A model generated the notes under the pieces. The model saw only the letters and a program-made list of their open reading frames with translations, did not search any database and was not told where the DNA came from. Shown piece after piece: positions 1-10,600 of a DNA stretch of 64,000 nt (its first letter is position 1; each line of letters begins with the position of its first letter). Origin of the DNA: Blastopirellula sediminis (GTDB lineage: Bacteria > Planctomycetota > Planctomycetia > Pirellulales > Pirellulaceae). Position numbers and translations under genes: made by a program. Where the stretch lies: the NCBI RefSeq assembly GCF_020966755.1, contig NZ_JAJKFT010000010.1, forward strand, positions 558,001 through 622,000, given 5' to 3'.

Positions 1-142
1 GCGAGACGACGTCAACTTGCTGCTTGCGGAGGATTCCAAACAGTCGATGACGACCTGGGGCGAGCACGCCGACAAACTCGCCGTCGACAAAGTGCAGACC
101 CGCTTCGTAGGTTTGAATGAGAACTTGCTGGTAGAATTTCAT
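1..142 (-). CDS. SPFH/band-7 (slipin-like) protein, N-terminal fragment
   Basis: Only the first 47 codons are inside the window; the gene continues past the left edge. ATG at 142 is preceded by an AGGAG ribosome-binding site about 12 bases upstream. The start of the protein contains GLHFVDGEFVGVLAPGRHRL, which resembles the N-terminus of bacterial slipin/HflK-like SPFH proteins, where a short strand-turn segment with a conserved V-L-x-P-G-R-x-R precedes the band-7 domain. Such proteins scaffold membrane proteases or organise membrane microdomains. The assignment rests on this short motif alone and the membrane topology cannot be seen. Confidence 0.6.
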   Translation of the reverse strand, partial: MKFYQQVLIQTYEAGLHFVDGEFVGVLAPGRHRLFGILRKQQVDVVS

Positions 143-592
143 GGTCGTCATTACTCCTGTTCCGCTCGTCGATTAACGCATCGGAATCGGCTCCTAAAAA
201 AACAAATGGGTGAAAAGTACGAAATTCAATTCGGTCGTGATTGTGCGTGTACGAAAAATGCCTTCCAGGAGGCGAACGTTCGCCGCGATCCCATCTTTTG
301 CAACGGGGGATCGTCGGTGCGCACCGTGCGCCAACGGCGTCGTCCTGCTTGGTGCGCACCCGTCTCCTCGAAAGGAGAACCAGGCGTGCCGGCCGCAGAG
401 TTCGGCCAGAGGCGGCTTCGATGCGGACCGTTCGTCCCGCAGAGCCGCAAGCAAATGGCGCCGCCGACAAAGCGATCGTCATTCTCGGCATCTCCACCAG
501 GCGGCCGAAGCCAAATGGCGTAGTTGCGTTGACCGACAAGGCGCCGCGTCGACGACTGATCGTGGGAAAGTCGCATCCCTTCAGGCGGTTGT
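143..592. other. Intergenic stretch between SPFH gene and tRNA island
   Basis: No supportable gene. Long open frames exist on both strands but overlap one another, lack ribosome-binding sites and show arginine/alanine-rich composition typical of noncoding GC-rich DNA. A promoter for the leftward SPFH gene should lie near 143-230, but no convincing -35/-10 pair was identified. Confidence 0.6.
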
Positions 593-664
593 GAACCGTG
601 CAAGATTCGAACTTGCTACTTCCAGATTGCTTGTCTGGTGCTCTACCAATTGAGCTAACGGTAA
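593..664 (-). tRNA. Aberrant tRNA-like gene (anticodon-loop CAAGCAA, nominal AGC)
   Basis: The minus strand folds into a cloverleaf: D stem GCTC/GAGC with a TTGGTAG loop, anticodon stem CCAGA/TCTGG, T stem GCAAG/CTTGC with TTCGAAT loop, and acceptor TTACCGT against ACGGTTC. Two features are abnormal: the first two acceptor pairs do not match, and position 33 is A instead of the universal U. The nominal anticodon is AGC (Ala box), which bacteria do not normally use. No CCA is encoded. It is either a decayed tRNA or a noncanonical island tRNA; normal decoding function is doubtful. Confidence 0.65.
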
Positions 665-695
665 TGGTCTGGCGCGCTCTTGGCGCACCAGGGGA

Positions 696-762
696 GCAGT
701 GGGCGGGATTCAAACCCGCTACCGGCTTCCTTAGCCGACGTCCTCATATTGGACACCACACG
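696..762 (-). tRNA. Aberrant tRNA-like gene (anticodon-loop TAAGGAA, nominal AGG)
   Basis: T arm GCGGG/CCCGC with TTTGAAT loop and an anticodon stem TCGGC/GCCGG are clear. The D arm has a GTCC/GGAC stem but its loop lacks the G18-G19 pair, the gene is short (about 67 bases), and the outer acceptor pairs mismatch. Position 33 is A, as in the neighbour at 593-664, and the nominal anticodon AGG (Pro box) would carry A34, unusual in bacteria outside Arg-ACG. No CCA encoded. Probably a degenerate member of the tRNA island. Confidence 0.5.
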
Positions 763-868
763 AGAAACGCGACCGTCGAACCCGTATTCGCGGAACAGGG
801 TCGGCCCATCTGAACAAGAGGCCGCCGCGCCGCCGGAGCATCACGCTTCTCTATGCTTGCATCAAAAA

Positions 869-940
869 AACGTCGGCGGGAATCGAACCCGCGGTTCAAA
901 CCGTTTTGCAGACGGTCGGCTGGCCATCAGCGGCGACGTT
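869..940 (-). tRNA. tRNA-Cys (GCA)
   Basis: Acceptor AACGTCG/CGACGTT pairs fully; D stem GCTG/CAGC with a short loop; anticodon stem ACCGT/ACGGT with loop CTGCAAA giving anticodon GCA and U33; T stem GCGGG/CCCGC with TTCGATT loop. Positions 8-9 are CC rather than the usual T-A, and the base after the acceptor stem runs into a T tract with no CCA. Structure is otherwise complete, so this is the most credible tRNA in the left part of the island. Confidence 0.8.
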
Positions 941-950
941 GAAATAAAGC

Positions 951-1022
951 GGCTCACCCAGGAGTCGAACCTGGCCTACGACCTTCGCGGGATCGCGTGC
1001 GAATCCAACACACTCGCAAGCC
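951..1022 (-). tRNA. tRNA-Arg-like (GCG)
   Basis: Acceptor GGCTTGC/GTGAGCC (with G-T pairs), anticodon stem CGATC/GGTCG, loop CCGCGAA, T stem CCAGG/CCTGG with TTCGACT loop. The anticodon reads GCG, which would decode CGC; bacteria usually read this codon with the inosine-modified ACG tRNA. Position 33 is C instead of U. It lies only about 10 bases from tRNA-Cys, in tandem. Identity is moderately secure, function uncertain. Confidence 0.65.
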
Positions 1023-1030
1023 GAAAAGAG

Positions 1031-1066
1031 GAAATGACTAATGCCTAAGTCCTAATGTCTAACGAC
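1031..1066. repeat. TAATG-type short repeat, copy 1
   Basis: Short iterated words of the form 'actaatgcctaagtcctaat' sit between tRNA genes. The complementary words (cattagacatt, attaggcatt) recur at 1188-1221, so the two blocks form an inverted pair flanking about 120 bases. Simple reiterated TAATG/CATTA motifs of this sort may be slippage products or remnants of a mobile hairpin. Confidence 0.6.
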
Positions 1067-1187
1067 GTTTCGTAGCATCCTACGACTATTCGCTGCGGCA
1101 TCCCGAATATTGGAGACGAGCGAAAAAAGGCGGATTGCGGCGTCTAAAACAGAAGACATTTCGACGAAGCGCGGGGCAACAGCTCCG

Positions 1188-1221
1188 GCATTAGACATTG
1201 GTCATTAGACATTAGGCATTT
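1188..1221. repeat. TAATG-type short repeat, inverted copy 2
   Basis: Contains cattagacattggtcattag and attaggcatt, the inverse complement of the words at 1031-1066. It ends seven bases before tRNA-Met. Confidence 0.6.
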
Positions 1222-1227
1222 ATAAGT

Positions 1228-1295
1228 CGCGGACGCGGGAGTCGAACCCGCTGCCCGAAGCTTATGAGACTTCGTCGAGCTCCGGCTCGTCCGCA
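1228..1295 (-). tRNA. tRNA-Met-like (CAT), shortened D arm
   Basis: Acceptor TGCGGAC/GTCCGCG, anticodon stem GAAGT/GCTTC with loop CTCATAA (anticodon CAT, U33 present), T stem GCGGG/CCCGC with TTCGACT loop. The D region is only about 13-15 bases and folds at best into GAGC/GCTC with a four-base CGGA loop, several bases shorter than normal. CAT could be elongator Met, initiator Met or the lysidine-modified Ile tRNA; the truncated D arm prevents a decision. Confidence 0.7.
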
Positions 1296-1322
1296 ATGAA
1301 AAGTTGTGAAGGGAAGGGGAGT

Positions 1323-1403
1323 GCGCCGGGACGGAGTTGAACCGCCACAGTTCGAAAACGAGTGGTTTACAGCCACTGGGGCTCGCCGATGCCCAGCCGA
1401 CGC
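1323..1403 (-). tRNA. tRNA-Tyr (GTA)
   Basis: Acceptor GCGTCGG/CCGGCGC, D stem GGGC/GCCC, anticodon stem AGTGG/CCACT with loop CTGTAAA (anticodon GTA, U33 present), an extended variable arm as expected for bacterial tRNA-Tyr, and T stem GGCGG/CCGTC with TTCAACT loop. About 81 bases. All arms are intact, so this is a credible functional tRNA. CCA is not encoded. Confidence 0.85.
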
Positions 1404-1414
1404 ATAGTTGTAGT

Positions 1415-1491
1415 GGCACGAGTGAGAGTCGAACTCACAAAGTCACGAAGTTCTGAGCTTCGCCGCTTTGCCAAGGTTTGCGTACCGTGCC
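1415..1491 (-). tRNA. tRNA-Leu-like (CAG)
   Basis: Acceptor GGCACGG/TCGTGCC, TA at positions 8-9, D loop with TTGGCAAA, anticodon stem CGAAG/CTTCG with loop CTCAGAA (anticodon CAG, U33 present), T stem GTGAG/CTCAC. The variable region is only about seven bases, much shorter than the long type II arm normally found in bacterial tRNA-Leu, so leucyl identity is by anticodon only. Confidence 0.75.
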
Positions 1492-1540
1492 TAATTAATT
1501 GAGCGGAAACTGTTGCAATTTGTTACCGCTTTTTCTGCAG

Positions 1541-1616
1541 CGCCCCTGACGGGATTTGAACCTGCGACCTCCGCCGTGACAAAGCGGCGAGCACTCCGGG
1601 CTGCTCTACAGGGGCG
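1541..1616 (-). tRNA. tRNA-Asp (GTC)
   Basis: Acceptor CGCCCCT/AGGGGCG, anticodon stem CCGCT/GGCGG with loop TTGTCAC (anticodon GTC, U33 present), then a variable/T region whose order matches the well-known bacterial tRNA-Asp (GGAGGTCGC followed by a TTCAAAT loop). The best conserved tRNA in the island. CCA is not encoded. Confidence 0.85.
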
Positions 1617-1654
1617 TTTTTTTCGTAGGATCTCCGATGCGTCGCACCGCAGCA

Positions 1655-1794
1655 CACTAGCCCGAGGCGCGAGCCGAGGGAAAGCGGCCGTGACGCAATG
1701 TCGAAACCAGAATGACGAAAGCGGCGTCACTTTCTTTCTTCCGCTTTCAGCGATCTTCCCAACGCATTCCCTCGGCTTGCGCCTCGGGCTAGTG
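1655..1794. repeat. Inverted doublet of the dispersed ctagcccgaggcgcgagc repeat
   Basis: Left copy at 1655-1687 (cactagcccgaggcgcgagc...) and right inverted copy at 1762-1794 (...cttgcgcctcgggctagtg) flank about 75 bases of unrelated sequence. A second doublet of the same family is at 2759-2910 and single copies are at 49149-49177, 60521-60552 and 63977-64000. The paired inverted arrangement is the architecture of a REPIN or BIME-type element. Confidence 0.75.
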
Positions 1795-1825
1795 TTGGAC
1801 AAGAGTTAAATTGGTCATCGCATTT

Positions 1826-1847
1826 GGTCCGCACAGCGGATCCTACG
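1826..1847. repeat. ggtccgcacagcgga-type repeat, single copy
   Basis: A short near-palindrome (ggtccgc/gcggatc) followed by ctacg. The same word in complementary and direct orientation makes up both arms of the inverted repeat at 60867-60951, so this is a solo member of a second dispersed family. Confidence 0.55.
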
Positions 1848-1851
1848 AGGC

Positions 1852-1925
1852 TGCGAGAGCTGGAATCGAACCAGCGTCAACCTGATTCAAAGTCAGGCAT
1901 CACTACCAACAGCGAACCTCTCGCA
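1852..1925 (-). tRNA. tRNA-Gln (TTG)
   Basis: Acceptor TGCGAGA/TCTCGCA is perfectly paired, D loop contains TTGGTAG, anticodon stem CCTGA/TCAGG with loop CTTTGAA (anticodon TTG, U33 present), T stem GCTGG/CCAGC with TTCGATT loop. A regular 74-base tRNA lacking an encoded CCA. Confidence 0.88.
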
Positions 1926-2037
1926 ACATCAATCACGAACCGAATTGTCAAAGATCAAAATCGCCGAAACGTCGTTTCGGACCTCGCGGCGCGCTCCCCC
2001 CGCATCATCCCACCACTGGAGCGCGCCGCGTCAGTCG

Positions 2038-2328
2038 CTAAATCACGTCAAAGTAGTCGGCCGACACCTCTAAGGCGCGGCGTCCGCCGCCGAGTCGCAG
2101 TTCAAAGGCGTCCTCGCCGATACCGCTGGGACGCAGATCGACGTCCAACTCTTGGCCGCCGCGGAACTGTAAACGCTGCGGCTCGTCCGCTTCCTGCGGT
2201 CCCAGCACCACGGCGTAACGCTGATCAGCGCCGCCCCGGAAACGGATCCGAGCCGAGCGGATCGCCGGCCGGCTGGGAATTTCAAAGCAGGCGGCGATCG
2301 CTTGTTGAAACAGGGGTTGGCTATTCAT
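2038..2328 (-). CDS. Small hypothetical protein inside the tRNA island
   Basis: A 96-residue frame starting at ATG 2328, with AGGAG seven bases upstream; an in-frame TTG two codons earlier is less well placed. The protein is soluble with no signal peptide, cysteine motif or membrane segment. It has alternating charged and hydrophobic stretches (ARIRFRGGADQRYAVVLG) suggestive of beta strands. It lies between tRNA-Phe and tRNA-Gln on the same strand, so it may be co-transcribed with the tRNAs. I do not recognise a family. The good ribosome-binding site and balanced composition favour a real gene. Confidence 0.6.
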   Translation of the reverse strand: MNSQPLFQQAIAACFEIPSRPAIRSARIRFRGGADQRYAVVLGPQEADEPQRLQFRGGQELDVDLRPSGIGEDAFELRLGGGRRALEVSADYFDVI

Positions 2329-2346
2329 CGTCAATCTCCTGACAGT

Positions 2347-2417
2347 GGACGAGGGAGCGCTCGAATCTCCGTCTTCTGGTTTTCAGCCAGACGCTACTCC
2401 GTCTCAGCTACTCGTCC
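2347..2417 (-). tRNA. tRNA-Phe-like (GAA)
   Basis: Acceptor GGACGAG/CTCGTCC, TA at 8-9, D arm with GAGACGGAGTAGC, anticodon stem TCTGG/CCAGA with loop CTGAAAA (anticodon GAA, U33 present). The T stem GGAG/CTCC lacks the universal 53-61 G-C pair (A against G). It is the first gene of the island in transcription order and stands ten bases after an intrinsic terminator. Confidence 0.75.
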
Positions 2418-2426
2418 AAAGTGCAC

Positions 2427-2460
2427 AAAAAAAGCCCGGCGTCTAAGGCGACCCGGGCTT
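2427..2460 (-). terminator. Intrinsic terminator directly upstream of the tRNA-Phe gene
   Basis: On the minus strand AAGCCCGG and CCGGGCTT form a GC-rich stem followed by seven T residues. The orientation stops transcription coming from the right, although no minus-strand gene ends between here and 2993. It could close a long untranslated transcript or act as an attenuator in the island leader. Confidence 0.7.
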
Positions 2461-2758
2461 GTGCAGAACATCCGCGCAAGTCATCCGCGTCACCAGCGAA
2501 AATCGAGGTACAACGATTGCATCAGACAATTGCCTGAGGTCAGATCGCATTCGGGTTGTCGCTGCATAAACGTCATGGCGGAAAGTATTACTCGCAAAAG
2601 CTTTGGGTTTCGTTTTTAGGAGCCCGCTAGCGGCAGTCGCACAAGCGGTACGAATAGGTAGACGACGTAGCGGGCAAAAGGTTCGAGGCGAGTGGAAAAA
2701 AATTACGGAAATGCGAATCCGCGATTATTCCCCCGCGTGCGCAAGCCCCATTTCTTTA
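2461..2758. other. Intergenic stretch, possible tRNA-Leu remnant
   Basis: No protein gene seen. On the plus strand near 2641-2700 the words aagcggtacgaataggtaga and aaggttcgagg resemble the D arm and T arm of a leucine tRNA, but the anticodon and variable arms are missing, so at most this is a deletion remnant. Confidence 0.35.
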
Positions 2759-2910
2759 GTAGCCCGAAGCGCAAGCGAGGGAAATGCGGCCAAGAAGTAT
2801 CGACCAACGTTACCCTAAGAACGAAGAGTGAAGCGGCTCGTACTCTTTCTTTTTTTCGCACTCTATGTTTTTCCCACCGCATTTCCCTCGCTCGCGCTTC
2901 GGGCTATTAA
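2759..2910. repeat. Inverted doublet of the dispersed tagcccgaagcgcaagc repeat
   Basis: Left copy 2759-2790 (agcccgaagcgcaagcgagg then gaaatgcgg) and right inverted copy 2877-2910 (ccgcatttccctcgctcgcg then cttcgggctatta) are almost exact reverse complements and flank about 85 bases. Same family and arrangement as 1655-1794. Confidence 0.8.
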
Positions 2911-2939
2911 TGAGGAAGAACGAGCGGCGAAATGCGCAT

Positions 2940-2970
2940 AAAAAAAGCCTGCTCTTTTGGAGCAGGCTTT
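2940..2970 (-). terminator. Terminator of the cytochrome c peroxidase gene
   Basis: Minus strand: AAAGCCTGCTCC, a short loop, then GAGCAGGCTTTTTTT. It begins about 24 bases beyond the stop codon of the cytochrome c peroxidase gene. Confidence 0.9.
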
Positions 2971-2993
2971 CTCGTACGTTTCTCCAACCGAAA

Positions 2994-4232
2994 CTACTTC
3001 GGCAAGCGACTGGTTTCGACCGTGGGGAAATCGCCGGTCAACGCTTCCATGAACGCGACCAGGTCCTTCTTGTCCTGTTCGGTCAGGTCGAGCTTCTTCA
3101 CCTTGTCGCTCAGGTACGGATTCGGGTGGCCTCCCTTGGCGTACCATTCGACCACTTCCATCAGCGTCTTCTGGCTGCCGTCATGCATGTACGGGCCGGT
3201 CTGAGCAATGTTACGCAGGGTCGGGGTCTTGAAGGCGCCTTTGTCCTTTTCTTCCTTGGTGATTTCATAGCGGCCGAGATCCGGCTTTTCGACGTCCATC
3301 CCAACGCCCAGGTTGTGATACAGCTCGTCGGTAAAGTTAGCGCCGGCGTGACACGCGGTGCACTTTCCTTTTTCGCTGAAGAAGATCTCGCGACCGCGGC
3401 GAGCCGACTGGGACATCTCCTTGGCGCCTTTCACGGCGGCGGCATACTTTTCGTACAGATCCGGATCATCTTCCTTCAGGAACTTGATGTCGTCGCCAAG
3501 TTGGTTCTCGAAGGTGCGCTGCACTTCGTAGTAATCGTACGGCGCCGGACCGGTGACGACGGCTCGTTCAAACGTCGCAATCGCTTTGCCGACGTTTTCG
3601 ATCGTGATGTTGTCGTCGCCAAAGACCTTCTTGAACTCCAACTTGTAGCCGGGGATCTTGTTCAGATCGGCGACGCAGGCGTCATGCGTAAAGCCCATTT
3701 CGATCGGGTTGGCGATCGGTCCGATCGCTTGGTCTTCAAGCGTCGCAGCGCGGCCGTCCCAGAACTGCGGACCGCTCAAGATGCGGTTGAAGCTGACCGG
3801 GGAGTTGCGATTCCCTTCCTGACCCAAGACGCCGACGCCAAATTGCGTTTCCTTCGCCCAGCCATGGTTCGGATGATGGCAATCGGCGCAGCTGACCGTT
3901 TGATCGACCGAGAGACGCTTGTCGAAGTAGAGCTGGCGACCAAGTTCGATCTTGGCGCGGGTCATCGGGTTCTTGTCGAGCCCGGTGATGTTGCCGGCTT
4001 GAGCGGCGATGCCGTAGGGAAGCTCCACTTCCAACGTTTCGCTGTTGGCGGGATCAGCGAGGTACTTTTCGATGTCGGCGACTTCCAGCGGGCCTTCGCC
4101 CGGGATGCCGGCGGTCAGCGACGGATCGCCGAGCGTAACTTTGTTCGATTTCGCGGCCGGTTTGTCGGCAAATAGAGTCGTGGAACCAGCGATCAACGCG
4201 ATCGCTAGCGCGCCCGTTAGAAGGCGTTTCAT
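2994..4232 (-). CDS. Dihaem cytochrome c peroxidase (MauG/CCP family)
   Basis: A 412-residue exported protein. The start at ATG 4232 has AGGAG upstream and opens a signal peptide (MKRLLTGALAIALIAGSTTLFA). Two c-type haem motifs are visible: SCADCHH at about residues 114-120 and KCTACHAG at about 290-297. The PNHGWA and FWDGR segments are typical of the bacterial CCP family, which reduces hydrogen peroxide in the periplasm using electrons from small cytochromes; MauG relatives instead oxidise protein substrates. The gene is single, followed by its own terminator. A peroxiredoxin gene lies directly upstream on the same strand but behind a separate terminator, so the two peroxide-defence genes are neighbours without being one operon. 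Confidence 0.93.
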   Translation of the reverse strand: MKRLLTGALAIALIAGSTTLFADKPAAKSNKVTLGDPSLTAGIPGEGPLEVADIEKYLADPANSETLEVELPYGIAAQAGNITGLDKNPMTRAKIELGRQLYFDKRLSVDQTVSCADCHHPNHGWAKETQFGVGVLGQEGNRNSPVSFNRILSGPQFWDGRAATLEDQAIGPIANPIEMGFTHDACVADLNKIPGYKLEFKKVFGDDNITIENVGKAIATFERAVVTGPAPYDYYEVQRTFENQLGDDIKFLKEDDPDLYEKYAAAVKGAKEMSQSARRGREIFFSEKGKCTACHAGANFTDELYHNLGVGMDVEKPDLGRYEITKEEKDKGAFKTPTLRNIAQTGPYMHDGSQKTLMEVVEWYAKGGHPNPYLSDKVKKLDLTEQDKKDLVAFMEALTGDFPTVETSRLPK

Positions 4233-5279: not shown

Positions 5280-6224
5280 ATGACGAACGCGGATCGAAAA
5301 ATTGGTTGCCTGTTGGGACTCGCCGTCGGCGATGCGCTTGGCGCCGCCGTCGAATTCATGTCGCCTGGTTCTTTTCCGCCGGTTACCAAATATCGCGGAA
5401 ACGGACCGCATCGACTCGATCCCGGAGAGTGGACCGACGACACGAGCATGGCGCTCGCGCTGGCCGATTCGATCTTGTCGGTCGGCTGGGATCTGAATGA
5501 TCAGGCTGAGCGCTATCTGAAGTGGTATCGCAACGGCGAATACTCGGTGAACGGCCGCTGCTTCGATATTGGCAACGCGACCCGCGCGGCGCTGCAGCGT
5601 TATGAACGGAGCGCCGATGGCAGTACCAGCGGCGATCCTTCTTCGTACAGCAGCGGCAACGGATCGATCATGCGACTAGCGCCGGTGCCGATGGTCGCCG
5701 CCGCCTTGCTTTCGAAGGACGTTGCGCGTCTCGTTGAGCTGGCGGCCGAGTCGAGCTTGCCGACGCATGCCAGTGAACAATGTTTGTCGGCGTGTCGCTA
5801 TTTCGCGCTCGTTCTCGCCGGCTTGATTAATGGCGAAGATCGCGACGTCGTTTTGGCGAGCGACTGGGCGCCGCTGGAGACGTTGCGCAAACTTCATCCG
5901 CTGCACCCCGAAGTAGAAGCGGTAGCGGAAGGCTCGTTCCGCCAACTTCACCCGCCGCAGATCGAAGGTAGCGGGTACGTCGTCAAATCGCTCGAAGCGG
6001 CTCTCTGGGCGATGCATGACGCCGCCGACTTTCGCGAAGCGGTCCTGCGTGCGGTCAATCTCGGCGACGACGCCGACACGACCGGCGCCGTCTGCGGACA
6101 ACTAGCCGGCGCCTATTGGGGCTGGAGCGGAACGCCTGACGATTTGCGCGATGGACTGGCACAGTCCGACATGCTGCTCGACTTCGCGCAGCGACTGTCG
6201 GAAACGTCGGCCGAAAATTTCTAG
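5280..6224 (+). CDS. ADP-ribosylglycohydrolase family protein (DraG-like)
   Basis: A 314-residue cytosolic enzyme with GGAG nine bases before ATG 5280. The fold is recognised from GLAVGDALGAAVEF near the N-terminus, the metal-binding TDDTSMAL motif at about residues 52-59, and the GDDADTTGAVCGQLAGA segment from about residue 261, which together supply the binuclear magnesium site of the DraG family. Members remove ADP-ribose from proteins, nucleic acids or small molecules; the substrate here cannot be inferred and no ADP-ribosyltransferase gene is near. Divergent from peroxiredoxin, with a 270-base shared upstream region. Confidence 0.92.
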   Translation: MTNADRKIGCLLGLAVGDALGAAVEFMSPGSFPPVTKYRGNGPHRLDPGEWTDDTSMALALADSILSVGWDLNDQAERYLKWYRNGEYSVNGRCFDIGNATRAALQRYERSADGSTSGDPSSYSSGNGSIMRLAPVPMVAAALLSKDVARLVELAAESSLPTHASEQCLSACRYFALVLAGLINGEDRDVVLASDWAPLETLRKLHPLHPEVEAVAEGSFRQLHPPQIEGSGYVVKSLEAALWAMHDAADFREAVLRAVNLGDDADTTGAVCGQLAGAYWGWSGTPDDLRDGLAQSDMLLDFAQRLSETSAENF

Positions 6225-6313
6225 CAAGCTGGCGACCAAGAAAGACTAACGCCGCCCACACGAAAAAACTTCGCATGAGCGGCGGCGTAGTGCGTGCGCG
6301 AGTGGTGTGAATC

Positions 6314-7630
6314 TTAGCTGAAGAGCTCCGCGATGGGGTGTCCGCCGTCGGTGATCGGGACCGGGCGGTCGCCGGCGTACAATTCTTCGTAGGGGTTGAT
6401 GCCGAGGGTCTGGTAAATCGTCGCAAACAGGTCGGGGACCGAAACGGGGCGATCTTCGATCTTCATCGCCAGTTCGTCGGTCACGCCGATCGCTTTGCCG
6501 GTTTGTAAACCGCCGCCAGCGAGGACAACCGTGAAGGCTCCTCCATGATGACCTCGACCGCCGCCGCCGTCAAATTGGGCCGGGCGACCAAATTCGCTCG
6601 AGATGACGATCAACGTCTTGTCGAGCAATTTTTTCTCCTCCAGGTCGGTCACCAGCGTTGAAATAGCGCCGTCCAACTCTTGAATCAGCAAGTGCTGGTT
6701 CAGCTGGCCTTCGTTGTGCGTATCCCAGCCGGTGCCGTTGACGAAGTTCAAATTGTGCGACACTTCGATGAAGCGAACGCCCCGTTCGACCAGGCGGCGC
6801 GACAACAAGCAGCGTTGACCAAACTCGCCGCCGTACTTATTGCGGAGCGAGTCGGGTTCATTCTTCAGATCGAACGCCTTCATGAATTCGGGGCCCGAGA
6901 GTCGGAGCGCCGCCTGACCCGCTTCGGCGTAGTCGGTGACCAGCTTCTTCTCTTCGGCCTTAGTCAGATAACGGCTGCGGAGCTTGTCGAGAACGTCCTC
7001 ACGACGTGCGGCGCGAGTGTCCGAAATGTGCGGCATGCGAGCCAGGCCGTTCGGGCCTTGGTTGGTGTCGGTCAGATAGACGTAACCAGCGCTAGAGCCC
7101 AGAAAGCCGGGACCGCGAGTGACGTTCGGATAACCGATCAGCATGTAGGGAGGGGCGACATCGCTGGCCGCGCCGCGCTGGTACGCGACGACCGAACCAA
7201 TCGACGGATAGACGATCGTGCCGGAGGTGTTGCGGCCGGTGTGCATCTGATTGGTCGCCGCGGCATGTTCGTCGATCACGTCATGATTGACGGTACGGAT
7301 CGGATTGAACCGTTCCATCAACGGCGCACAGCGCTTCAGATGTTCGCAGACCTGCAGGCCGGGGACAGCCGTATCGATCGCGTCGTAATAGCCGCCGGCT
7401 TTCTTCGCTTTGGCGTCCCCTTTCGCCTTCGGATCCCAGGTATCAATCTGGGCGGCGCCGCCGCCGAGCCAAACCATGATGCAATGCTCGGCTTTCCCCA
7501 TCGGCACGACAGGATGCGCCTTTTCGCCTTCATTGGCGAACAGCGGAACTCCGCCGGCCATGGCGAGCGCGCCGGCCGCAGCGGCCGATTGCTTCAGGAA
7601 GTCGCGTCGATTGGTATTGTGCATGGACAT
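6314..7630 (-). CDS. DUF1501 family Tat-exported protein
   Basis: A 438-residue protein starting at ATG 7630 (AAGGA nine bases upstream). The N-terminus [19 protein letters not shown] is a twin-arginine signal. The body matches the DUF1501 family, related to the alkaline phosphatase/sulfatase superfamily ([39 protein letters not shown]). Planctomycetes carry many copies, nearly always next to a DUF1549/DUF1553 gene, as here: its start lies 53 bases downstream of the stop of the 1118-residue partner. The pair is probably one transcript. The biochemical role is not established; a link to polysaccharide or cell-surface processing is only inference. Confidence 0.92.
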
Positions 7631-7683
7631 CAGCAGGCGTCCTTGTTTTGATCTTGGTGGAAGGCGAATGGAGTGAGTAGCGA

Positions 7684-10600
7684 CTAAGGAACGAAGACGA
7701 ATTCCGGCGTATTCAACAACGCCCAGAGCGCGTCTTCCATTCGGGTGCGCCACTCGGGCGTCAGACGCTGCGTCGGCAAATCCCCTTTCCGCACGACATG
7801 TTCCAGTTCGACGACAATCTCGTTCGCACGAGGATTCAAGTGATTGGTCCAGGCGACCAGTCCGCGCGGCAACGGATCGCGTTTCACGATCGGCGCATCG
7901 ACGCGTCGCTCCTGAAAACCAGGCGAAAGCAGTTCGCGGAAAATCGCCAACTCTTCCGCGTCCGGCTCACGGGTCAACACCCGCAGGAAGAGCCGACGGG
8001 TCAACTCGTCCAGCGTGACGTCTTCCAACGCCATTTTGGTGAAGACGTTGTCGTCGCTCAAACGGGTAAAGCGTTCGCCCAACTCGCCGTTGGCCAGAAT
8101 CGCCGGTTGCAAAACGTTCGGTTCCTTTTCCCGCTCGGCAATCGGATTCTGACGAGATCCAGTCCAACCGAACGACTCCAACGTCACAACAAACGGAGCG
8201 GCGAACGGCTTGGCCAGGCTAGGGCGATCCCGCTCGTTCGTGAGCGAGACGAATTCCCACGCTCGTACCGGCACGCCGAAGTCGGTCGAAATATCGGCGT
8301 TTAGCGCGCCATCGATATCAATGTTCAGCGACCCCGCGTCGAGCGGTTTCTCGCACGCCGCGAAGAGGGAGTCGACGACCTGTTCGGCGGTCATTCGTCG
8401 CGTCGCAGGACCGGCAAAGTTAAATCCAAACGGCGACGGCTCAACCGTGCTCCGCTGATAGGCGTCGGACGAGACGATTTGTCGCGTCAGATGCTTCATG
8501 TCGTATCCATGCGCGATAAAGTCGCGAGCCAGGTACTCGAGCAGTTCCGGGTGAGTCGGATCGGCGTTTTCCCAATCGTCGACCATTTCAACAAAGCCGC
8601 GTCCCATCAGACGCTGCCAAACGCGGTTGACGATCACTTGGGCGAACCGGGAGTTCTCCGGAGCGGTCATCAGCAGCGCCAGTTGTTCGCGCGAATCGTC
8701 GGCGTCGTTCAGGTACGCTTCATCCGGAGCCGCTTTCAATTGCTCGAAGGCCCAGTGGGGCGAGATCTTTTCGCCCGGCTTCAAGACCGACTTTACGGTT
8801 CCTTGGCGTCCGCCGCCCGGCACGGTGCTCGATTTCGGCACCGAGATCTGGCTCCGGTTGAGCATCGCTCCCATGCCGAAAAGGTCGGCTTGGGCGATAT
8901 CGTGATACGGAGCGTCATGGCAGCGAGCGCACTTCATCTGCACGCCGAGGAACGCCTGACCAAGGACGAACGCTTTGGCCGCCATCGGCGAGTCGTTTTG
9001 CGAAGCGATTCCAAAGCCGGCCGCGCCACCCACACGAGCGCTTCCTTCCATCATCACCAGTTCCGTCACGATCCGATCGAACGGCTTGTTGTCGAGGAAC
9101 GCTTCGTACAAATACCAGCGGAAAGGCCCGGTGTTATTGAGCGTCGGTTTCACGAGGCTCGGGTTTTCGGCCAGCGTGTCTTGCCAGTAACCAACCCAGT
9201 TGTCGGCCCAGCCTTGGTCGGCCAACAGGCGATTGATCGCCCAGGTGCGACGCTCGCCTGCGGGTTGCTGTTGGTATTGGGCGATCAGTTCCGGCGAAGG
9301 AATCTGTCCGACGATGTCGAGCGACAAGCGGCGGAGGAACGCCAGGTCGCTGATCGGGCCGGTCGGCGGTTCTTCCGCTTCGGCCAACTTTACATTCAGG
9401 AAGTGGTCGATGTCGCCGTGAACCGCTTTCTTGTACGGATCGGCCAGATCGGCGAGCGACGGAACTTCAATCGCTTCGAGCCCGGCGACATATTCTTTCG
9501 CATGGGCGTGACGCTTTTCCCAGTAAGGACGGGCTTCGTCAATTTCGGCGCGACGGCGGAAATCAAGGTCGCGATACATTTGTCGCTGATCCGCGGCGAA
9601 CGGCAGCCACGTCTCATCGGTCACCGCGATTTGGAATTCGTCCAGCGGCGACAACAGGTGAAAGTCTCCCTCCGGCGTGGCGAGGCTGACCGACGATTCG
9701 CCGAAGGTCTGACGACGACTGCCGCCGCCGACGATCATCTCGTAAGCGACAACATGCTCTTTCCCGTCGCCGGTGATCGTGATCACTTTTTCCTGATCGC
9801 CACGAGCCAGGGGGCGGATGTTGGGCGCCAGCGATCGATCGGGATCGAACACCGTTCCATGGGCCGAGCCGCTGATGTTGTGGAACGGCGTCGTCGCTTG
9901 CAACTCGCCGTCGATAAAGACGCGAGCCGAATTGCGGGAGCGAACCAGCAGACGATGTTCCCCTTCGGGCAACGTCACTCGACCTGCCGCACGCAGCAAA
10001 TAAGGATTCGGACGATCGACCCGGACGCCGTCGCCATTGTACTTCTGACGAGCGTCGAGGAAGGCGAACGCCGGGATCTCATACGCTTCGATAAACCGGG
10101 GCTCACGGAAGTCCCATGACTTACGATTCGGGATTCCTTCGTACAATTCGACCCGCACGGCGTCGAGCGGAAGCTGAGCGACGTCGAAGGTCGGCTTCGG
10201 CGCTTCGTAGCGGAAACGCGTCTTGATCGCGTCGGCCGGAAGGACGCTGCGATAGAGCGCGACTTCGTCAATTTGACCATGGAACGAGCTGCCAGCCTGG
10301 CCACCCATCGCCGAACCGATCCAGACCTGGTCATCGTCGACCAGCGGCGCTGCGCCGGTGTCGCCACCCATGTCCCATTTGCCTTTGACCGGCTGACCGT
10401 CGACGTAGCCGTGCAGCGAACCCTTTTCGCCAAAGACGTAGGTAACCGCGACATGGTGCCAACCGTCGCCGACGGCGATCACTTGTTCGCTATCCCAACG
10501 GTGATAACTCGCGTTGTCGGCGTCGCGATACAAAAAGCTGATGCCGACCGAGCTGTTGCCGCAAAGGCGCAGCGACCAATTCTGGTTGTCGGGCGAAAAC

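What the first reader, a model, noticed from the sequence alone, without database searches (positions are those of the whole stretch)
593..2417. tRNA island with structurally aberrant members
Ten tRNA or tRNA-like genes sit in tandem on one strand within 1.8 kb. Four are normal (Tyr, Asp, Gln, Cys); others have A or C at position 33, nominal anticodons AGC, AGG and GCG that bacteria rarely use, mismatched acceptor ends, missing G18-G19, or truncated D arms. None encodes CCA. Dense tRNA arrays with unusual members are known from mobile elements and phages in other bacteria, so this may be a horizontally acquired or decaying array. The seven-base loops CAAGCAA and TAAGGAA in the first two are alike, suggesting duplication from one parent rather than random decay.
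Basis: partly seen in the sequence, partly recalled or inferred. Interest (0 to 1): 0.75.

Follow-up and report, generated by a model that had tools for sequence, protein, structure and literature searches.

The report
Emergency tRNA operon with switch
The cluster is half of a split, complete spare tRNA set that looks held silent behind a translation-sensing switch, and its two oddest "tRNAs" belong to a large conserved RNA tied to a membrane scaffold gene of the RNA-repair kind rather than being tRNAs that read codons.

Summary
Ten tRNA or tRNA-like units do sit on the minus strand at 591-2417. They are two different things. (1) Eight (Phe, Gln, Asp, Leu, Tyr, Met, Arg, Cys) look decoding-competent. 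With sixteen more on another contig, beside RNA ligase, Ro60 and RtcB genes, they cover all 20 amino acids. Discriminator bases match the housekeeping tRNAs in 22 of 24: not decaying, not recent copies. (2) The two strangest units ("AGC" 591-664, "AGG" ~691-766) are domains of a ~600-nt structured RNA upstream of a slipin (SPFH/Band-7) gene that starts at 151. The RNA is found at 70 of 74 slipin loci in several phyla, with strong covariation. Its "anticodon" is free: 32 triplets in 70 seven-base loops, changing at the neutral rate within the genus while the frame is frozen.

In 20 of 24 arrays a terminator and a leader ORF precede the tRNAs, and the leader's stop region can pair with the terminator's 5' side: suggested leader-peptide attenuation. 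In Anabaena (PMC10272220) a tRNA array, rtcB and a slipin share one stress-relieved repressor. Best reading: a stress-induced spare tRNA set bundled with an RNA-repair scaffold RNA. Function is untested.

The parts
2490..2576 (-). leader ORF, 28 codons (MTFMQRQPECDLTSGNCLMQSLYLDFRW), stop TGA at 2492-2490
   Evidence: same length and end in G018 and B. marina; three codons longer in G076
2485..2494 (-). proposed antiterminator 5' arm GGTGACGCGG, overlapping the leader stop codon
   Evidence: own-partner pairing beats permuted partners over 20 leaders (0 of 50000), modest in the window itself
2427..2460 (-). intrinsic terminator hairpin (one bulged base) and T-run in front of the first tRNA; 2456-2447 is the proposed antiterminator 3' arm
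   Evidence: read by eye; hairpin with upstream bases folds at z -3.16; missed by the scans, which allow no bulge
2345..2417 (-). tRNA-Phe(GAA)
2038..2328 (-). small ORF (96 aa) inside the array, found in three other genus members
   Evidence: no Pfam or NCBIfam match
1849..1925 (-). tRNA-Gln(TTG)
1540..1615 (-). tRNA-Asp(GTC)
1413..1491 (-). tRNA-Leu(CAG), without the long variable arm of housekeeping Leu
1321..1403 (-). tRNA-Tyr(GTA)
1227..1295 (-). tRNA-Met(CAT)-like, minimal D arm
   Evidence: not called by ARAGORN; 7-bp acceptor, 5-bp T stem, A73
949..1022 (-). tRNA-Arg(GCG), C33
   Evidence: Arg(GCG) recurs in other arrays
868..940 (-). tRNA-Cys(GCA), reduced D arm, U73 kept
210..862 (-). 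slipin-associated structured RNA: 5' domain (about 862-767), tRNA-like 2, tRNA-like 1, 3' domain (about 590-210); ends approximate
691..766 (-). tRNA-like domain 2 (loop TAAGGAA)
   Evidence: R1 hit 700-854, 51.2 bits, full model; genus alignment
591..664 (-). tRNA-like domain 1 ('Ala-AGC', loop CAAGCAA), not a decoding tRNA
   Evidence: R1 hit 597-681, 66.8 bits
1..151 (-). start of the slipin (SPFH/Band-7) gene, 371 aa, running left out of the window
   Evidence: (Band_7 E 2e-29)

Best explanation
The locus is one half of a split, complete spare tRNA set that is normally silent and is switched on when translation fails, bundled with an RNA-repair scaffold module. Proposed steps: (a) a transcript starts upstream of a short leader ORF; while the leader is translated to its stop codon, the ribosome covers the antiterminator arm, the terminator forms and the array stays off [inferred from covarying sequence]. 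(b) When ribosomes stall in the leader, for instance because tRNAs are cleaved or translation is inhibited, the antiterminator forms and the array is read [inferred]. (c) The array tRNAs are processed, charged and replace damaged ones [supported by kept identity elements, not shown]. (d) Downstream, the ~600-nt RNA with tRNA-like cores and the slipin form a membrane-bound platform that works with RtcB-type repair [inferred from linkage]. The tRNA-like cores mimic tRNA shape and do not decode [well supported].
For: Two arrays of G000 together cover all 20 amino acids; discriminator matches 22 of 24, 0 of 100000 shuffles; Ala G3:U70 and His G-1 kept. Another genome has all 20 in one array of 36 tRNAs (L202). 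RNA: 21 of 33 pairs with double-sided change, 90.9% paired, 0 of 500 shuffles, slid controls 30-46%; P1 helix own 19.9 vs swapped 13.1, 0 of 5000; found at 70 of 74 slipin loci with at least 600 nt upstream, 30 of which trained the model. Attenuator: terminator plus leader ORF in 20 of 24 arrays examined; own pairing 23.4 vs 18.0 over 20 leaders, 0 of 50000; the six scored last, own 22.0 vs 17.9, 610 of 50000; penultimate Arg in 16 of 20. No RtcR over NCBIfam's cut-off in G000 (18 matches, best 337.5 of 650 bits), so another control is needed. Precedent: Anabaena TrcR represses the 26-tRNA operon, rtcB and slipin alr0740, relieved by translation inhibitors (PMC10272220, passages and section 9). 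RtcB within the fetched stretch of 12 of 80 slipin loci; rtcR beside slipin in Citrobacter.
Against: No expression data. The window's own antiterminator is modest (20.5; 10 of 100 shuffles reach it), as are several others one by one (L062 20 and L048 17 of 100; L072 173 and L198 238 of 1000). The same-genus G076 has lost the stop at that spot. Four of 24 arrays examined (L086, L088, L103, L140) lack the leader pattern. Leaders were picked by eye. No sigma-70-type promoter was found in 1-3000. No RtcB gene lies next to the window's slipin; it is on contig C2. The RNA's minimum free energy is not unusual for the window (z -1.17). The 3' domain structure was predicted from the same alignment that was used to test it. 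Ordinary tRNAs score up to 68.9 bits with R1, so the window hit alone does not discriminate; position and the genus alignment do.
Confidence: 0.55

Rival explanations
1. The tRNA-like cores (and perhaps the array) are bait: sacrificial or sensing substrates for anticodon nucleases, cleaved in place of real tRNAs and then repaired or signalled through RtcB/RtcR.
For: Anticodon stem is kept (all 5 pairs with double-sided changes, 99.3% paired) while triplets vary widely (32 in 70); link to rtcR and RtcB elsewhere; that RtcR's CARF domain binds 5' tRNA fragments ending in cyclic phosphate is recalled from the abstract of PMC7790460, of which one search showed only the beginning.
Against: The loop changes at the neutral rate, not measurably faster (5 of 7 vs 96 of 164 fourfold sites, p 0.7), so diversifying selection is not shown; no one triplet dominates (commonest 8 of 70); no RtcR over the cut-off in this genome. 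In Salmonella the tRNA-like YrlA is not cleaved by the nuclease (PMC7790460 passage).
Confidence: 0.2
2. The tRNA-likes are only RNA-processing punctuation or a cis-acting leader of slipin mRNA (RNase P/Z sites or a tRNA-mimic translational switch).
For: They mostly lie 400-750 nt upstream of the slipin start on the same strand.
Against: Acceptor stubs are short; covarying 5' and 3' domains flank them; in three Desulfocapsa/Desulfobulbaceae-type loci (L125, L126, L135) an RtcB match lies between RNA and slipin, and in L076 and L089 the RNA is nearly 3 kb upstream.
Confidence: 0.12
3. A horizontally acquired, decaying tRNA array with no function.
For: Odd members, patchy distribution (57 of 198), divergence from housekeeping tRNAs (0.67-0.79 best identity).
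Against: Identity elements and stems kept; order and leader conserved across the genus; complementarity of the two arrays.
Confidence: 0.06

Closest known systems
Long stress-induced tRNA arrays (trn operon of Anabaena sp. PCC 7120)
   Same: Supernumerary near-complete tRNA set beside a housekeeping set; co-regulated with rtcB and a slipin in Anabaena (PMC10272220).
   Different: Here split over two loci, each below 20 genes, physically joined to slipin or to RtcB/Ro60; a leader-peptide attenuator is proposed instead of the TrcR repressor.
SPFH/Band-7-linked 'novel tRNA-like molecule' of RNA-repair systems (Burroughs and Aravind 2016, recalled; not held)
   Same: Band-7 gene with a cognate tRNA-like RNA in an RNA-repair setting.
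   Different: I could not compare sequences. Added here: ~600-nt architecture with 5' and 3' domains, tandem cores, free anticodon loop, tRNA arrays and their leader.
Rsr/Ro60-YrlA-RtcBA operon under RtcR (Salmonella)
   Same: tRNA-like RNA, ligase and scaffold logic; Ro60, YrlA-like RNAs below the gathering score and RtcB beside the second array.
   Different: The window's RNA is not YrlA (YrlA scores 21 bits against a cut-off of 69); SPFH scaffold instead of Ro60; no RtcR over the cut-off in the genome.
Leader-peptide transcription attenuators (trp type, recalled)
   Same: Short ORF, mutually exclusive antiterminator and terminator.
   Different: Leaders show no run of one codon (13-18 residue types in 10 of the 11, 20 in the longest reading of the other); the commonest feature is a penultimate Arg (16 of 20); it would control tRNAs, not a biosynthetic operon.

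Membership tests
tRNA array unit (20 or more tRNAs, 2 or more per kb; definition quoted in PMC5966550) | at least 20 tRNA genes | tested here: not met
   10 units in the window and 16 at the second locus; met in relatives L066 (36), L202 (36), L208 (37)
tRNA array unit (20 or more tRNAs, 2 or more per kb; definition quoted in PMC5966550) | density of at least 2 per kb | tested here: met
   10 in 1.83 kb, about 5.5 per kb (and two by eye)
stress-induced tRNA operon (Anabaena trn type) | silent normally, induced by translation stress | not testable with these tools
   needs RNA-seq; only the attenuator-like leader is seen
stress-induced tRNA operon (Anabaena trn type) | separate complete housekeeping tRNA set | tested here: met
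   45 tRNAs called in 40 fetched stretches, all 20 amino acids; three further listed places, one below the cut-off, not fetched
SPFH/Band-7 with cognate tRNA-like RNA | Band-7 gene next to a tRNA-like RNA | tested here: met
SPFH/Band-7 with cognate tRNA-like RNA | same RNA family as the published one | not tested
   paper not held
RtcB RNA-repair operon | RtcB ligase in the same gene neighbourhood | tested here: not met
   RtcB is on contig C2 beside the other array, not beside the window; within the fetched stretch of 12 of 80 slipin loci elsewhere
RtcB RNA-repair operon | RtcR activator | tested here: not met
   18 matches to NF038308 in the genome, none over the cut-off, best 337.5 of 650 bits; in the same of 14 control genomes is over it
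leader-peptide attenuator | terminator with an alternative pairing that overlaps the end of a leader ORF | tested here: met
   sequence level only:
leader-peptide attenuator | read-through depends on leader translation | not testable with these tools
   needs a reporter assay
decoding tRNA (for the two tRNA-likes) | conserved anticodon and 7-bp acceptor stem | tested here: not met
   5 of 7 pairs in both; 32 triplets in 70 loops of the slipin-proximal core

The most novel reading that the evidence does not exclude
Bacteria of many phyla carry a large RNA with a tRNA-shaped core that has shed its anticodon and works with a membrane slipin in RNA repair; in planctomycetes it closes operons holding a complete spare tRNA set that is released by a general-purpose attenuator reading the health of translation itself rather than one amino acid.
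Probability: 0.4. Interest if true: 0.87.

Novelty: new variant of a known kind. Interest (0 to 1): 0.7.

Why it matters
If right, cells keep a second full tRNA set behind a switch that opens when tRNAs are attacked, and couple it to a scaffold RNA for repair. That makes the purpose of 'cryptic' tRNA arrays directly testable, gives a general sensor of tRNA-pool integrity, and turns a widespread structured RNA with no Rfam match beyond tRNA in the scans made into an accessible object of study: a stretch that looks like a reduced form of it, with its slipin, is in 1624 of 5426 complete E. coli genomes.

Tried and rejected
Rfam at the gathering score found nothing beyond tRNA (and group II introns at one locus) for the large RNA; lax scans gave only weak sub-threshold matches. 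Pfam gave no name for three small array ORFs, NCBIfam and PADLOC none for the one of the window. Phage records hold no full-length slipin (4 matches covering at most 42%). A sigma-70 scan found none in 1-3000, and its terminator scan did not list the array terminator. Free energy of the whole RNA was uninformative for the window. Considered and dropped: recent duplication of housekeeping tRNAs; the loop as a target under positive selection; missing CCA as an aberration. At first I set arrays L095 and L112 aside as lacking the leader pattern; scoring them showed that they fit, so the counts here replace that. An earlier count said 'every array examined' and gives rough leader coordinates, and entry 6 says four codons for G076; those are superseded. 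Literature: nine full-text searches listed no paper on a tRNA-array attenuator or on this RNA; the library lacks many papers.
Full report
WHAT IS THERE. The window is the stretch 558001-622000 of contig C10 of a 7.05-Mb genome in 10 contigs. A same-genus genome (G075, slipin 92% identical) has a contig of the same length as the Blastopirellula marina DSM 3645 record hit. On the minus strand, 2417 to 591, lie ten tRNA or tRNA-like units: eight called by ARAGORN, a Met-CAT at 1295-1227, and a second tRNA-like at about 691-766. Downstream, from 151 leftwards out of the window, is a 371-aa SPFH/Band-7 (slipin) gene (Band_7 E 2e-29). A 96-aa ORF of unknown family lies between Phe and Gln.

A SPLIT, COMPLETE SET. 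On contig C2 a second array holds 15 tRNAs plus a tRNA-His, next to an RNA ligase (PF09414), YrlA-like RNAs below the gathering score, a Ro60/TROVE protein and RtcB. The eight decoding tRNAs of the window and the sixteen of C2 share no anticodon and together cover all 20 amino acids. The genome also has housekeeping tRNAs for all 20: in 40 fetched stretches ARAGORN called 45, one without a clear anticodon; three further places listed, one below the cut-off, were not fetched. In none of the 45 does CCA follow the discriminator; one pattern match (Lys-CTT) lies two bases further on. All 24 array tRNAs have 6-7 acceptor pairs, G-U counted. 22 of 24 carry the commonest discriminator base of the housekeeping tRNAs of the same amino acid, against a mean of 10.0 and a maximum of 20 in 100000 shuffles. 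The exceptions are Arg-GCG (G, which one housekeeping Arg also has) and Glu-TTC. Ala keeps G3:U70 and His keeps G-1 (read); the roles of these elements are recalled knowledge. Best identity to any housekeeping tRNA is 0.67-0.79 for the 24, so these are old, divergent tRNAs. The four array Leu tRNAs lack the long variable arm. In relative L202 one array of 36 tRNAs covers all 20 amino acids; L208 covers 19; the other 11 arrays counted cover 10-18, some of them cut by contig ends.

THE TWO ODDEST UNITS ARE PARTS OF A LARGE RNA. Of 60 genomes sampled from the family, 21 have a slipin match with E below 1e-100. In 18 of these 21 a tRNA-like core lies within 850 nt upstream; of the other three, two are cut by contig ends and one has the core about 1.7 kb upstream. 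Around the core the sequence is conserved for roughly 600 nt. A scan of genome contigs with the slipin alignment found 578 relatives and kept the best 80 loci, from Planctomycetota, Desulfobacterota, Acidobacteriota, Verrucomicrobiota, Sumerlaeota and others. Model R1 (5' domain plus core, built from 30 of these loci) hits the same strand within 3 kb upstream of slipin at 70 of the 74 loci that have at least 600 nt upstream, 67 of them above 70 bits. The 30 training loci are among the 70. Six loci have too little upstream sequence. Of the four misses, L111 and L131 have weak hits of 31.6-31.7 bits at the right place, L085 has none and L096 only weak hits of the kind that array tRNAs give. Ordinary tRNAs reach 68.9 bits, so the window's own hits (66.8 for 597-681, 51.2 full-length for 700-854) rest on position and on the four-species alignment, which shows the 5' domain, both tRNA-likes and the 3' domain conserved.

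STRUCTURE. In 30 sequences 90.9% of cells pair, 21 of 33 pairs show double-sided changes, 0 of 500 shuffles reach any of the five measures, and slid partners pair in 30-46%. The closing helix P1 pairs far better with its own partner than with other species' partners (19.9 vs 13.1, 0 of 5000). The 3' domain, with a structure predicted from the same 18 sequences, has 92.5% paired cells and 42 of 57 pairs doubly changed, against a shuffle mean of 23.6 and a maximum of 29 in 200. Against this: the window RNA's folding energy is ordinary (z -1.17); that of L066 is lower (z -2.28).

A FREE ANTICODON. Among 80 slipin-proximal cores (70 of the loci above, eight, the window and G018), 70 have seven-base loops with 32 different triplets; ten have 5, 6 or 8 bases; 23 of 70 have A at 34. 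In four species of the genus (G000, G076, G018, B. marina) 5 of 7 loop positions vary against 6 of 66 elsewhere in the core (p 5.5e-4). Fourfold sites of slipin vary in 96 of 164 (0.59): the loop does not differ from that (p 0.7), the rest of the core does (p 8e-13). So the fold is selected and the triplet is not. Seven positions cannot exclude mild diversifying selection.

THE SWITCH. In the window a bulged terminator hairpin with a T-run (2460-2427) lies just before the first tRNA and a 28-codon ORF (2576-2490) before that. I examined 24 arrays or small tRNA groups with at least 489 nt upstream: 20 show a terminator with a leader ORF ending roughly 25-35 nt before it, and L086, L088, L103 and L140 do not; six more (L064, L067, L084, L093, L101, L106) are cut by contig ends. 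In some (L071, L095, L097, L112) the terminator is more than 200 nt before the first tRNA that ARAGORN calls. Leaders were picked by eye; in four loci another short ORF was also in range. In the 20, the stop-codon region can pair with the 5' side of the terminator: mean score 23.4 for own partners against 18.0 for all pairings, 0 of 50000 permutations; without three genus sisters of the window, 17 leaders, 0 of 50000; the six that I scored last, 22.0 against 17.9, 610 of 50000. An earlier set of ten divergent leaders gave 5 of 50000. The change can include the stop itself: GGTGACAC with GTGTCGCC in L202, GGTAACAC with GTGTTACC in L208, and TAG with a quite different stem in L095, L112 and L119. 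Of 20 terminators found in eight sources, two of which overlap, the five best-pairing are array terminators and the next reaches 20 (best eight seen). Arg is the last residue but one in 16 of 20 leaders (14 of the first 14; not in L095, L096, L112, L119). Caveats: the window's own pairing is modest (10 of 100 shuffles reach it), as is that of several others, and G076 has lost the stop at that place and ends three codons later. In L208 a group II intron lies between the terminator and the first tRNA.

LINKS TO REPAIR AND REGULATION. RtcB matches lie within the fetched stretch of 12 of 80 slipin loci; in three of them the match is between RNA and slipin. Five or more ARAGORN tRNAs, tRNA-like cores included, are upstream on the same strand at 16 of 80. 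The window's genome has no RtcR over NCBIfam's cut-off (best 337.5 of 650 bits over the ATPase part). In Citrobacter the slipin gene is divergent from rtcR and followed by a nucleotidyltransferase gene. Upstream of slipin in Citrobacter, E. coli and Burkholderia the sequence reads TGGCACG-N4-, a sigma-54-like site by recalled consensus, followed by a CGGCAC...GTGTTCCG element and a T-arm in Citrobacter and E. coli, or by tRNA-like elements in Burkholderia and Photobacterium. R1 scores 16.4 bits in E. coli and nothing in Citrobacter at E 10, so that membership rests on reading by eye. The E. coli stretch with slipin is in 1624 of 5426 complete genomes, 1621 with at least 80% of the query. In Anabaena the repressor TrcR controls the 26-tRNA trn operon, rtcB (all3526) and alr0739-alr0740 (hypothetical and slipin), and translation inhibitors relieve it (PMC10272220; I saw passages and section 9).

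WHAT IT MOST LIKELY DOES. Shown at sequence level: a complete spare tRNA set with kept identity elements; a conserved structured RNA with a non-decoding tRNA mimic; a covarying leader. Inferred: induction by failing translation, use of the spare tRNAs, and a slipin-RNA platform for repair. Rivals are bait for anticodon nucleases, processing signals, and decay.

STATUS. Stress-induced tRNA arrays are known. A Band-7-linked tRNA-like RNA was, as I recall, reported by Burroughs and Aravind in 2016, a paper I could not open. The attenuator, the domain architecture, the free anticodon and the split set I did not find in the held library. Hence: new variant of a known kind.

Noticed in passing
window 1654-1798 (by eye, similar stretches near 2740-2910): A palindromic repeat (AGCCCGAGGC...GCCTCGGGCT type) inside the array region accounts for 115 of the 118 matches to window 1-2700 in the own genome.
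   Followed up: no
L009 8517-13885 (G000 contig C2): RNA-repair island beside the second array: tRNA-His, RNA ligase (PF09414), YrlA-like RNAs below the gathering score, Ro60/TROVE protein, RtcB.
   Followed up: partly
L146 5620-7000: Slipin with its upstream RNA-like stretch is in 1624 of 5426 complete E. coli genomes, on chromosomes only in that collection; the next gene is a nucleotidyltransferase.
   Followed up: partly
L208 about 6000-7961: A group II intron lies between the array's terminator and the first tRNA.
   Followed up: partly
L009 16851-17121 and window 1413-1491: All four array Leu tRNAs lack the long variable arm that the five housekeeping Leu tRNAs have.
   Followed up: no
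L009 16294-16746 and 17150-17437; window 2038-2328: Small ORFs of unknown family embedded between array tRNAs; the window one is in three other genus members and matches to the 150-aa and 95-aa ones occur at L092 and L067.
   Followed up: no
L112, L119, L132, L148: Tandem tRNA-like cores upstream of slipin seem to occur also outside the window's genus, including in Photobacterium.
   Followed up: no
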